Assembly: GCA_039096225.1 (NCBI GenBank)
Contig: JBBPEB010000015.1
Location: forward strand, 1,841,001 to 1,905,000
Origin: Blastocystis sp. Blastoise
Lineage: Eukaryota > Sar > Bigyra > Opalinata > Blastocystidae
Direction of reading: 5' to 3'
DNA: 64,000 nucleotides
The notes under the pieces were generated by a model that saw only the letters and a list, made by a program, of their open reading frames with translations, did not search any database and was not told the DNA's origin. The position numbers and the translations under genes were made by a program. Shown here in pieces: positions 15,282 through 51,632 of this stretch (the first letter of the stretch is position 1; each line of letters starts with the position of its first letter).

Positions 15282-17102
15282 ATGGAAGCTACACAAGTTC
15301 AAAAGAAACAAATTAAAAATATTTGTTGTGTTGGTGCTGGTTATGTCGGTGGTCCTACTATGGCTGTCATTGCTAAGGAATGCCCTGAAATCCATGTTAC
15401 CGTTGTTGATGTTGATGCTAAGAGAATTGAAGCTTGGAATAGTGATTCTCTTCCTATTTTTGAACCTGGTCTTCATGAAATTGTTATGGAATGTAGAGGT
15501 AGAAATCTCTTCTTCAGTAACGATGTCGAAACTGAAATCGATAATGCTGATGTTATTTTCCTTGCTGTCAATGTATTTTATTTATATAGAATATACTTTA
15601 AAATATATACTAATATGATTATATCTATTTTATTTATATACTATAGTTTCTAATATATTATTTTTATTTATATACTATAGTTTCTAATATATTATTTTTA
15701 TTTGTATACTATAGTTTCTAATATACTATTTTTATAGACTCCTACTAAGACTTTTGGTATTGGTGCTGGTAGCGCTGCTAATCTCAAGTTCCTTGAATTA
15801 GCTACTAGAACTATTGCTCGTGTTGCTAAATCTGATAAGATTGTTGTATGCATTTTAATTAGTTTTTATTATATTTTAATTATTTTTTATTATATTTTAA
15901 TTAGTTTTTATTATATTTTAATTAACTTTTATTATATTTTAATTAACTTTTATTATATTTTAATTAACTTTTATTATATTTTAATTAGTTTTATTATATT
16001 TTAATTAGTTTTTATTATAAATAATATTAATAAATAAAAATATATATATAATAAAACTATGTGATACTATTATGTTTTTTTATAGGTTGAAAAATCTACA
16101 GTTCCTGTACGTACTGCTGCTACTCTTGAAAGAATTTTCAAGGAGAATAGCAAGGTTCATTTTGATGTTGTAAATAATCCTGAATTCTTAGCTGAAGGTA
16201 CTGCTATTAATGATTTATTACATCCTGCTCGTATTCTTCTTGGTTCTCAAAAGACTCCTTCTGGTCTTGCTGCTGTTGAAGCTTTAGTTGATTTATATGC
16301 TCGTTGGGTACCTCGTGAACGTATTATTACTACTAATGTTTGGTCTTCTGAATTAGCTAAGCTTACTGCTAATTCTTTCTTAGCTCAAAGAATTTCTTCT
16401 ATTAACTCTATTTCTGCTGTTTGTGAAGCTGTTGGTGCTGATGTTTGTGAAGTTTCTCGTGCTGTTGGTGCTGATCCTCGTTTAGGTAATAAATTCTTAA
16501 CTGCTTCTATTGGTTTTGGTGGTTCTTGCTTCCAAAAAGATGTTTTAGATTTAGTTTATTTAGCTCAACATTATGGTTTAGATGAAGTTGCTGATTATTG
16601 GAAACAAGTTATTAATATGAATGATTATCAAAAACGTAGATTTGCTCAACATATTATTCATGATATGTTTGATACTGTTAATGGAAAGAGAATCTGTATG
16701 TTTGGTTTTGCTTATAAGAAGAATACTGGTGATACTCGTGAAACACCTGCTGCTTATATTGCTAAGAACTTATTAGATGAACAAGCTAAAATCATGGTTT
16801 ATGATCCTAAAGTTACTGAAACTTCTATGTTTATGGAACTTGAATATACTTTAGGTGTCAATGAAGAAACTTGCCCTAAATTAAATGATTTAATTACTAT
16901 GGTTAAGGATCCTATTGCTGCCACTCAAGGTGCTCATGCTATTCTTATTATGACTGAATGGGATGAATTCAAGACTTTTGATTATAAGGCTATTTATGAT
17001 AATATGATGAAGCCTGCTTATATTTTCGATGGTCGTAATATTCTTGATCATAAGGCTCTTAGAGAAATTGGCTTTGAAGTTCATAATATTGGTAGAAACT
17101 AA
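15282..17102 (+). CDS. UGDH: UDP-glucose 6-dehydrogenase
   Basis: Cytosolic NAD+-dependent enzyme oxidising UDP-glucose to UDP-glucuronate, precursor of UDP-xylose and glucuronan polymers. Three exons, 15282-15572, 15738-15845 and 16086-17102, give 471 residues, the usual eukaryotic length. The N-terminal Rossmann site is [22 protein letters not shown] spans the first junction; [12 protein letters not shown] and [11 protein letters not shown] follow; [20 protein letters not shown] holds the conserved Lys and Asn; [10 protein letters not shown] has the catalytic Cys; [15 protein letters not shown] and MTEWDEF lie in the UDP-binding domain. All key residues are intact and the sequence is very close to animal and plant UGDH. 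Codons are strongly biased (GCT, GGT, ACT, CGT, TTA), as in the adenylosuccinate lyase and DUF2264 genes, suggesting high expression. Intron 2 is a tandem repeat. Confidence 0.96.
15847..16030. repeat. 22-bp tandem repeat in UGDH intron 2
   Basis: About eight copies of TTTTAATTAACTTTTATTATA-like units, with variation between AACT, AGTT and ATTT at one site. It fills most of the intron. Confidence 0.85.
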
Positions 17103-18282: not shown

Positions 18283-20648
18283 ATGAGTGAACCTATTGAA
18301 CAAACTGTTGAACAACCTACTGAACAAGCTTGTGAACAACCTGTTGAACAAGCTGAACTTCCTTTCGACGAAATGGAGATGCCTCGTAATAAATATGAGA
18401 ATCCTTTAGTCGATCGTTATGCTTCTAAGGAAATGTCTTATATTTGGTCTCCTGCTAAGAAATTCTCTACTTGGAGACAACTTTGGATTGCTTTAGCTAC
18501 AGCTGAAAAAGAATTAGGACTCGATATAACTGATGAACAAATTGAAGAAATGAAAGCTCATATTTATGATATAGATTATCAACTTGCTGCTGAAAAGGAA
18601 AAGCTTTTAAGACATGATGTTATGGCTCATATTCATGCTTGGGGAGAAACTTGTAAGAAAGCTATGCCTATTATTCATTTAGGTGCTACTTCTTGTTATG
18701 TTGGTGATAATACTGATTTAATTCAAATGAAAGAAGCTATGAATCTTATTCGTGGTAAACTTATGATTCTTATTGATACTTTAGCTAAGTTTGCTGATCA
18801 ATATAAGGACATGCCTACTCTTGGTTTTACTCATTATCAATGTGCTCAACTTGTTACATATCTTTTTTTTAAATATATATATATATTTTATTTATTTATT
18901 TATTTATTATTATTATTTATTTATTTATTTATATTATATATATTATTATTATTATTTATTTATTTATTATTATTTATGTAAATAATTAATATAAGTTATT
19001 GGATCATTCTTTATTTATATACAACAAAAAAAACTATATTTAAATATTATTATTATTTTTATATAAATAATGATGCTATTATTATATTAAAAGAGAGTAT
19101 ATTTCTTTAATTCTCTATACTGTTGGTAAACGTGCTACTTTATGGTGTCAAGATTTCCTTATTGATTTAGATAATGTAGAATATCAAATTGATCATTTAC
19201 CTTTCCGTGGAGTTAAAGGTACTACGGGTACTCAAGCTTCTTTCTTAGATTTATTTAATGGAGATCATGATAAAGTGAAAGCTTTAGGAAAGAGAGTATG
19301 TGAATTAATGGGATTTGAAAAGGATATTGCTGTTTCAGGTCAAACTTATACTCGAAAAGTTGATTATTATGTAATGAGTGTTTTAAGTGGTATTGCTGCT
19401 TCTTGTTATAAGATGGCAGGAGATATTCGTTTATTAGCTAATCTTAAAGAAATTGAAGAACCTTTTGAAAAGAATCAAGTATTTATAGAATTATTATGTA
19501 GTTTTAATATTATTATAATAATTTTTTTTTTTTGAATTTCTGTTCTTATTGTTCTTTAATAAATATAATAAATATAATAAATATAATAAATATAATAAAT
19601 ATAATAAATATAATAAATATAATAAATATAATAAATATAATAAATATAATAAATATAATAAATATAATAAATATAATAAATATAATAAATATAATAAGTA
19701 TAATAAATATAATAAATATAATAAATATAATAAATATAATAAATATAATAAATATAATAAATATAATAAATATAATAAATATAATAAATATAATAAATAT
19801 AATAAATATAATAAATATAATAAATATAATAAATATACTAACTATGCTAACTCTATAGATTGGTAGTTCTGCTATGGCTTATAAGCGTAATCCTATGAGA
19901 TGTGAACGTATTTGTTCTCTTTCTCGTTATATTATGAACCTTCCTGAAACATGTGCTAACACTCATTCCTGCCAATGGTTTGAACGTACTTTAGATGATA
20001 GTGCTATTCGTAGAATTGTATTACCTGAAGCTTTCTTAGCTACAGATGTCATCTTAACTATTGCTACTAATGTTACTAGTGGACTTGTTGTCTGGCCTAA
20101 GGTATGCATATATAAGATTTATTTCTCTATTCTTAATGATATCATTTAACCATTATTATTTTTTATGTGTAATTAAATCAATTTACCATTCTATTCTGTT
20201 AATCTCTATACTCTTATTAAAAAAATAAATATTAACATTTAATAATCATTTCTATATTTATTATATTTTATAAATAAAATAATCTTTAAAAATTATTATA
20301 AAATATATTTTATAATAAAATAATCTTTAAAATAATCTTTAAAATAATCTTTAAAATATATTATAAAATATATTTTATAATAATTTTTAAATTATTTCTG
20401 TCTTTAGGTTATTGAAACTCATGTTCGTGAACAACTTCCTTTTATGGCTACTGAGAATATATTAATGGAATGTGTAAAGGCTGGTGGTAATAGACAAGAT
20501 TTACATGAAGCTATTCGTGTTCATTCTATGGAAGCTGCTCGTGTTTTCAAAGAAGAAGGAAAACCATTCGATTTACTTGAAGTATATAACATTATATATT
20601 ATTATTTTCATTATTTTTTTATAATTAATTATTTTTTTAAATATTATT

Positions 20649-20711
<63 letters not shown>

Positions 20712-20898
20712 GCGTATTAAGGCTGATCCTTTATTTGCTCCTGTTCATGATAGATTAGACAGTATTGTCAATCCTCATGCTTTTATTGGTCGTGCTCCTG
20801 AACAAGTCACTGAATTTATTCAAGAATGTGTCGATCCTGCTCGTGAAAGAAATGCTACTTATCTTAAGAATACTCATTTAGATGCTGTTTCTGTCTAA
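18283..20898 (+). CDS. ADSL: Adenylosuccinate lyase
   Basis: Cytosolic purine enzyme that removes fumarate from SAICAR and adenylosuccinate. Exons 18283-18857, 19121-19478, 19859-20101, 20408-20581 and 20713-20898 total 1536 nt, exactly 512 codons (511 residues). A Glu/Gln/Pro repeat ([13 protein letters not shown]) precedes the enzyme body. Motifs: [110 protein letters not shown], the fumarate-lyase signature, with Ala where the family usually has Pro; [31 protein letters not shown]. The first intron joins QLV-T-VGKR only if it runs 18858-19120 with AT and AC ends, i.e. a U12-type intron. Intron 2 is a giant 9-bp repeat. Divergent from eL43 with a 290-bp shared upstream region. Confidence 0.96.
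18858..19120 (+). other. AT-AC (U12-type) intron in ADSL
   Basis: The intron starts ATATCTTTTT and ends CTCTATAC. The U12 AT-AC donor consensus is ATATCCTTT, one mismatch here. A branch-like TTCTTTAAT lies at 19103-19111, about ten bases before the end, where the U12 consensus is TTCCTTAAC. Joining at these points gives GTT-ACT-GTT-GGT, the conserved VTVGKR; the nearest AG acceptor (19096-19097) would insert about seven foreign residues. Confidence 0.8.
19558..19836. repeat. 9-bp tandem array (AATATAATA), about 31 copies, ADSL intron 2
   Basis: Almost perfect array of the 9-mer with one G variant near 19698. It stays open in two frames, as Asn-Lys-Tyr and Ile-Ile-Asn repeats, but lies between exons whose junction (KNQ-IGSSAM) is fixed by conservation, so it is intronic. 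Confidence 0.95.
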
Positions 20899-50609: not shown

Positions 50610-51632
50610 TTAATGTTTGGAATTTGTATATTTTTCTACATCACGTTCGTATATTAAGGAATCAAAGAGATAAAACTATTTTTATAAATAAAATTAATAA
50701 AAAATAATAATAAAAGATAAAAAATATTTAAAAATAATAATAATAATATGATTATAATAATAAAAGGATATTTAGCATAGCATTTTCAACAATAGAATTG
50801 ATATGTTGTTGCATAGAAGGAATAAGCCAGCATGCATGAACTGCACCTTTAAATTCTTCAAAATGAACTTCTTTATTAAGTTTTAAGAGTTTCTCTTTAT
50901 ATTCAATACCACCATCTCTGCAAATATCATGTTCATCCACAAATATATATGTAGGAGGAACATACATTTCACAAGTTAACTCAGGATCATATATACCTAA
51001 AATAATAAGTATAAGTATACTATTAATATATACAGGGACTTCCTTCAGGACTACAAAATTCCTAAAAAATAAATAATAATATATATTTATCAATAACGAA
51101 TATATATATATACATCAATAGAATGATAAAAATAAGAGACAAAACATCCCATATGATAATTAGTTAAACCATAATATAATCCTAAATATATATATTTGAT
51201 TGCATTATATAATTTATTTTATATATCATATATTTTAGATATAATATATTTTAGACATAATATATTATATATATTATATATTATATATATTATATATATT
51301 ATATATTATATATATACCTTTAGTAGCATCTGATTTTGACATTTGACGAGTATCAGCAGCAGGATAAATAGCAAACTATACTTATATATAGAATAAATAA
51401 TAAATGAATTTTCACTATTAATATAAATTATAATACATTTTGTCTAATTTTATATTTATAATTTTCTTTAGCAAATCTGAACATCATATCAGCGCATATA
51501 TGACCACCAGCTGAGTCTCCTATTAAATAAGTTAATTCAGGATTAATTTTATATTCTTCAGCATGGTCTAATACATACTATAATATATAATATAATAGTA
51601 TATAAATATAATGTAAAAATATATATATATTA

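What the first reader, a model, noticed from the sequence alone, without database searches (positions are those of the whole stretch)
18858..19120. AT-AC U12-type intron in adenylosuccinate lyase
Conservation demands QLV-T-VGKR across this intron. No GT-AG pair gives it; the best GT-AG choice adds about seven residues (YISLILY). Ends AT and AC give it exactly, the donor reads ATATCTTTTT and a TTCTTTAAT branch-like site sits about ten bases before the AC. With these ends the five exons sum to exactly 512 codons. This implies a working minor spliceosome in this AT-rich genome.
Basis: partly seen in the sequence, partly recalled or inferred. Interest (0 to 1): 0.8.

Follow-up and report, generated by a model that had tools for sequence, protein, structure and literature searches.

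The report
Minor-class AT-AC intron in Blastocystis
A gene of the gut protist Blastocystis appears to carry a rare kind of intron that needs a second, 'minor' splicing machine, and parts of that machine are in the same genome; such introns were already known in other Blastocystis, so it is a well-supported new example rather than a surprise.

Summary
Confirmed at sequence level. Window 18858-19120 is best read as a U12-type AT-AC intron in adenylosuccinate lyase (ADSL). Of 70 open GT-AG, GC-AG or AT-AC choices it best fits relatives; it gives 511 residues plus stop and a gap-free match to a solved ADSL. Donor ATATCTTTTT, branch TTCTTTAAT and AC 10 nt after the branch A have joint chance about 2e-8 at these boundaries. 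The genome holds U11 and U6atac over Rfam cut-off, U12 and U4atac under it, all sharing one upstream word with U6, plus SNRNP25-, CENATAC- and DIM2-like genes and further AT-AC introns. The organism is Blastocystis sp. Blastoise. Blastocystis minor introns, mostly AT-AC, are published (PMC5608401, PMC10639083): a new member of a known kind. Possibly new: no excess of GTATCCTT-type introns; U6atac reads GCCG for the conserved AAGG; a multicopy gene family with five AT-AC introns per copy. No RNA evidence was available.

The parts
18283..18857 (+). ADSL exon 1 (from ATG)
18858..19120 (+). U12-type AT-AC intron, 263 nt, phase 2
18858..18867 (+). 5' splice site ATATCTTTTT (consensus ATATCCTT; T at +6)
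19103..19111 (+). branch site TTCTTTAAT, branch A taken as 19110, 10 nt before the intron end
19119..19120 (+). 3' splice site AC
19121..19478 (+). ADSL exon 2 (T|VGKR...EKNQ)
19479..19858 (+). ordinary GT-AG intron with TACTAAC-like branch; holds a 9-base tandem repeat
19859..20101 (+). ADSL exon 3
20102..20407 (+). ordinary GT-AG intron
20408..20581 (+). ADSL exon 4
20582..20712 (+). ordinary GT-AG intron; 7 of 10 close unnamed relatives also stop matching at this site (LLE|)
20713..20898 (+). ADSL exon 5 with stop

Best explanation
Window 18858-19120 is a U12-dependent (minor-class) AT-AC intron in the adenylosuccinate lyase gene of Blastocystis sp. Blastoise. [quoted passage not shown] The U4atac/U6atac.U5 particle with DIM2 and CENATAC then joins, and the exons meet at 18857/19121 to restore QLV-T-VGKR. 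Shown here: the motifs, the best fit to the protein family, candidate snRNA and protein genes, and many like introns. Inferred: that splicing happens in the cell, and by which machine.
For: Exact motifs and frame; best of 70 open choices; gap-free alignment to a solved ADSL over 459 residues; joint chance about 2e-8. U11 62.9 and U6atac 63.8 bits, above cut-off; U12 46.8 and U4atac 29.7, below it. CTTCTAATCA begins 57-64 nt upstream of all five snRNA genes examined (four minor ones and U6) and nowhere else in 592,874 strand-bases held. U4atac:U6atac duplex -31.5 kcal/mol, reached by 9 of 1000 shuffles. SNRNP25, CENATAC and DIM2 matches. Genome-wide ATATCCTT..TTCCTTRAY 30 vs 6 control; 25 of these 30 have AC in place against a rate of 0.227 (P about 3e-12). 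ATATCCTT..TTCTTTAAY, the ADSL branch form, 106 vs 15 control, repeats included. A Pfam domain runs across the AT-AC joint in 7 of the 20 (of 25) candidates sent, one of them weak. In three copies of a gene family five AT-AC introns vary in length while 1200 flanking exon columns hold no gap.
Against: No transcript was examined. The ADSL donor has T at +6, a form not enriched genome-wide (22 hits, 10 of them one repeat, vs 23 control), although one intron of the L070 family uses it. U12 and U4atac score below Rfam's cut-offs, U4atac with E 0.045 only. U6atac lacks the conserved AAGG at nt 12-15. U4atac also pairs with the major U6 in the computation (-26.6 kcal/mol). Branch-like motifs without a donor had AC in place in 4 of 9 cases, above the 0.227 rate. 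The reversed-pattern controls are small and the 106 hits include repeats.
Confidence: 0.95

Rival explanations
1. An ordinary U2-type GT-AG intron (18853-19097) with a six-residue insertion in the protein.
For: It is an open choice with legal ends.
Against: It replaces QLVT by [10 protein letters not shown] at a site where 143 of 145 listed homologues read Q.xTVGKR and scores 20 points lower. It leaves the U12-type branch and AC unexplained.
Confidence: 0.02
2. A U2-type AT-AC intron, spliced by the major spliceosome despite its ends.
For: Major-class AT-AC introns exist (PMC8280824, passages).
Against: Donor ATATC and branch TTCTTTAAT at 10 nt are U12 forms and match other AT-AC introns of this genome. 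The U2-type AT-AC donor is ATAAG (recalled), which is not seen here.
Confidence: 0.02
3. The gene is a decayed copy and the segment is not spliced at all.
For: No ADSL protein of this organism is among the 120 listed public hits of either search, although UGDH from the same contig is listed at 100%.
Against: All five exons are open and close to relatives (87% identity over 320 residues to P0001); the other three introns are regular. A missed or wrong gene model explains the absence better.
Confidence: 0.01

Closest known systems
U12-type introns of Blastocystis sp. subtype 1 (Gentekaki et al. 2017, PMC5608401, intron section read in full; Larue and Roy 2023, PMC10639083, passages read)
   Same: Same genus; U12-type introns with typically AT-AC ends; all four minor snRNAs and, in subtype 1, all seven U11/U12 proteins (346 introns in 319 genes; 253, 77% of them AT-AC, in the later survey).
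   Different: There median length 39 bp and 23% not AT-AC; here 59-113 nt in the better supported cases and 263 nt in ADSL, in an AT-rich genome, with no excess of GTATCCTT donors. One gene family here carries five AT-AC introns per copy.
U12-type introns of Phytophthora (Bartschat and Samuelsson 2010, PMC2846911, passages read) and Saprolegnia (PMC10639083, passages)
   Same: Stramenopiles with a few (Phytophthora) to dozens (Saprolegnia) of minor introns.
   Different: Different lineage; this ADSL intron was not compared with theirs.
A-type (AT-AN) minor introns of human that depend on CENATAC, whose strongest interactor is TXNL4B (PMC8280824, passages read)
   Same: AT-AC ends; CENATAC-like and DIM2/TXNL4B-like genes occur in this genome.
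   Different: In human most minor introns are GT-AG (69%) and only 24% AT-AC.

Membership tests
U12-type AT-AC intron | 5' splice site RTATCCTT, one of the Cs at +5/+6 may be T (rule quoted in PMC2846911) | tested here: met
   ATATCTTT at 18858, T at +6; the T form is not enriched genome-wide
U12-type AT-AC intron | branch site TTCCTTAAC-like (recalled consensus) close to the 3' end | tested here: met
   TTCTTTAAT at 19103-19111, branch A 10 nt from the end; this form is enriched genome-wide behind ATATCCTT, 106 vs 15 control, repeats included
U12-type AT-AC intron | AT and AC ends that fit the protein | tested here: met
   best of 70 open choices
U12-type AT-AC intron | excision shown in RNA | not testable with these tools
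   no RNA reads held
Minor spliceosome | U11, U12, U4atac and U6atac RNAs | tested here: met
   one candidate each; U12 and U4atac under Rfam cut-off, backed by the shared upstream word and, for U4atac, by pairing with U6atac
Minor spliceosome | U6atac carries the AAGG that pairs with the 5' splice site | tested here: not met
   reads GCCG at nt 12-15 where the Rfam consensus has AAGG; a second AAGG at nt 20-23 is kept and pairs with donors in the computation
Minor spliceosome | specific proteins: SNRNP25, CENATAC, DIM2/TXNL4B | tested here: met
   PF18036 45.9 bits over two pieces; PF14968 41.2 and 30.7 bits; DIM2 207.9 bits to TXNL4B vs 105.9 to DIM1
Minor spliceosome | U11-48K | tested here: inconclusive
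   CHHC fingers at L007 and L008; in the PDB both match gametocyte-specific factor 1 better than 48K
Minor spliceosome | 65K, 35K, 59K, 31K and 20K proteins | not tested
   the 12 whole-genome searches went to other queries

The most novel reading that the evidence does not exclude
In this Blastocystis, minor splicing has become a nearly pure AT-AC system. U6atac has lost the AAGG that elsewhere pairs with the 5' splice site, so the site would be chosen by U11 together with CENATAC and DIM2, with U6atac adding only the pairs at +4 and +5. Minor introns have been multiplied, five per gene, in a multicopy gene family.
Probability: 0.3. Interest if true: 0.65.

Novelty: new member of a known kind. 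Interest (0 to 1): 0.36.

Why it matters
Larue and Roy (PMC10639083, passages) weighed whether Blastocystis minor introns could be false positives or recent gains and asked for more species. A second, AT-rich Blastocystis with candidate machinery and many AT-AC introns speaks against the first and makes the second testable. The altered U6atac and the lack of an excess of GTATCCTT-type introns give a natural case for asking what reads the first bases of a minor intron. In practice, gene models that allow only GT-AG may miss such genes: no ADSL protein of this organism is among the listed public hits.

Tried and rejected
Anaerobic fungi were my first guess for the organism; a paper search on that guess found nothing and the best named ADSL hits were stramenopiles. 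An ADSL tree of 57 rows (the query and 56 of the 120 hits) only showed an unnamed clade; UGDH named the organism.

The T(+6) donor was tested genome-wide and is not enriched. The repeat at C6:75225, one of 11 copies that I count in the listing, has no AC within 20 nt of the branch word and no open frame, and was set aside as chance (one copy looked at). Window candidates at 1893 and 3022 do not join long open frames. A control, branch-like motifs without a donor, was small and came out at 4 of 9 with AC in place; I used the rate at 20,710 positions instead (0.227). In one search the frame picked by ORF length was wrong for L014; one search lists the frames, and I chose one by eye for each piece sent to Pfam. 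Five of the 25 candidates (L019, L029, L034, L035, L043) were not sent.

That relatives lack the ADSL intron rests on 10 unnamed proteins, 7 of which end like ORFs called on DNA; I did not see their DNA.

Full report
The gene. ADSL lies at window 18283-20898 (+). With AT-AC ends at 18858-19120 and three GT-AG introns (19479-19858, 20102-20407, 20582-20712) the CDS is 1536 nt, 511 residues plus stop. It aligns without a gap, query 36-494, to the best PDB chain, 5nx8, named adenylosuccinate lyase in the call (human, recalled). Its best named hits are stramenopiles.

The intron. I listed 70 splice choices with GT-AG, GC-AG or AT-AC ends that keep the frame open (donors 18760-18999, acceptors 18940-19199). 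The choice 18858-19120 scores best against four homologues (mean 1874.0); the best GT-AG choice scores 1853.75. Four boundary shifts give the same CDS and only AT-AC has ends of a known class (classes recalled). The donor is ATATCTTTTT, the branch TTCTTTAAT, and the branch A lies 10 nt from the end. Given the boundary, the chance of such a set is about 2e-8 from base composition, with the motif form fixed after seeing it. At the joint, 143 of 145 listed homologues read Q.xTVGKR.

The machinery. Searches of the whole genome (33.3 Mb, 34 contigs; window at C4:1841001-1905000) gave: U12, 46.8 bits, cut-off 53; U11, 62.9 bits, cut-off 39; U4atac, 29.7 bits, cut-off 53, E 0.045; U6atac, 63.8 bits, cut-off 33, plus a weak match that is the major U6. 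Of the 14 control genomes 0, 1, 1 and 8 gave some match to U12, U11, U4atac and U6atac, and none passed a cut-off; all those named are prokaryotes. The word CTTCTAATCA begins 57-64 nt upstream of U11, U12, U4atac, U6atac and U6; these five are its only occurrences in 592,874 strand-bases held. I read it as a shared snRNA promoter element. U4atac and U6atac pair over a 13-bp stem; duplex energy -31.5 kcal/mol, reached by 9 of 1000 shuffles (mean -19.3); with the major U6 the value is -26.6. Proteins: SNRNP25 (PF18036, 45.9 bits over two pieces, 0 of 14 controls); CENATAC (PF14968, 41.2 and 30.7 bits, 0 of 14 controls); and two DIM genes, one of which, spliced by hand, matches TXNL4B at 207.9 bits and DIM1 at 105.9. 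U11-48K is uncertain: two CHHC fingers (L007, L008) match gametocyte-specific factor 1 better than 48K in the PDB, and the best CHHC hit, L006, looks like TRM13 (recalled). 65K, 35K, 59K, 31K and 20K were not searched.

Other AT-AC introns. ATATCCTT with TTCCTTRAY 31-91 nt behind it: 30 places, reversed-pattern control 6. In 25 of the 30 an AC ends 6-12 nt after the branch motif; the rate at 20,710 positions is 0.227, P about 3e-12. I sent 20 of the 25, spliced, to Pfam. In 7 a domain crosses the joint: MFS_1, Vps35, DNA_pol_A, HECT, SNF2 and Aa_trans, and weakly ERAP1_C; MFS_1 and ERAP1_C are under their Pfam cut-offs. In 12 no family was found; in one, a mitochondrial L15-like protein (name by eye), the matched domain lies after the joint. 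With the ADSL-type branch TTCTTTAAY there are 106 places against 15 in the control. By my count of the listing, which shows only the first places, 21 look like one gene family and 11 are copies of a repeat of which the copy examined is non-coding; a few further pairs look alike too. Three copies of the family (L070, L072, L073) share five AT-AC introns that I picked by eye in L070: against L070 the introns hold 31 and 33 gap columns, while the 1200 flanking exon columns compared hold none, and donor, branch and AC are kept.

The organism. UGDH at 16086-17099 is 100% identical to WA158_001376 of Blastocystis sp. Blastoise, on a contig of 2,510,786 bases, the length of contig C4 that holds the window. 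Its lineage is Stramenopiles, Opalozoa, Opalinata, Blastocystis.

What is known. Gentekaki et al. 2017 (PMC5608401, section read in full) report 346 U12-type introns in Blastocystis subtype 1, typically AT-AC, with four snRNAs and seven proteins. Larue and Roy 2023 (PMC10639083, passages) find 253, 77% AT-AC, rapid turnover in the genus, and ask for more species. No held paper names Blastoise with Blastocystis, and only PMC10639083 holds 'Blastocystis' with 'minor introns'. The ADSL intron is thus a new member of a known kind.

What may be new. GTATCCTT with the same branch gives 2 places, which look like copies of one repeat, against 5 in the control, while ATATCCTT gives 30 against 6: the minor introns look almost purely AT-AC. 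This was tested for one length class and one branch form only. U6atac reads GAGCCGAGAGAAGG where the Rfam consensus is GAAAGGAGAGAAGG. In a human reporter, U6atac GG14/15CC together with a U11 suppressor rescues a CC5/6GG 5' splice site, so these bases pair (PMC4980772, passages). Here nt 13-14 are CC and nt 15 is still G, so by my reading only +4 and +5, and perhaps +8 and +9, can pair in that register. A second AAGG at nt 20-23 is kept and pairs with donors in the computation; in human it serves the U12/U6atac helix (recalled). The shared upstream word and the U4atac pairing argue that this is the working gene; an unseen second copy is not excluded.

Limits. There is no RNA evidence. Splicing, its dependence on U12 and the role of CENATAC/DIM2 are inferred from known families. 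Ten close unnamed relatives read through the sites of introns 1-3 without insert, so the intron may be lineage-specific; gain and loss cannot be told apart here.

Noticed in passing
L004 1501-1617 (-), genome C21:544821-544937: The only U6atac candidate over cut-off reads GCCG at nt 12-15 instead of the conserved AAGG that pairs with the 5' splice site.
   Followed up: partly
L070 (C13:1255000-1261000), L072 (C30), L073 (C14): A multicopy cysteine-rich gene family carries five AT-AC introns per copy in the three copies compared; indels between copies stay inside the introns.
   Followed up: partly
L001, L002, L003, L004, L005, 57-64 nt upstream of the snRNA genes: CTTCTAATCA is shared by U11, U12, U4atac, U6atac and U6 and found nowhere else in the sequence held: a likely snRNA promoter element.
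   Followed up: partly
whole genome (pattern counts): GTATCCTT-type minor introns show no excess (2 vs 5 control) while ATATCCTT-type do (30 vs 6).
   Followed up: partly
window 50645-50771 (-): A second AT-AC candidate in the window: ATATCCTTTT, TTCCTTAAT and AC near the end of an esterase-like frame (family by eye).
   Followed up: partly
window 18283-20898: No ADSL protein of this organism is among the 120 best public hits of two searches although UGDH from the same contig is listed at 100%; the public gene model is probably absent or wrong.
   Followed up: partly
window 19558-19836: ADSL intron 2 is mostly an array of a 9-base AT-rich unit, AATAAATAT, 30 exact copies.
   Followed up: no
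L006, C31:103943-104017 (-): The best CHHC zinc-finger hit of the U11-48K search looks like TRM13 (name recalled), not U11-48K.
   Followed up: no
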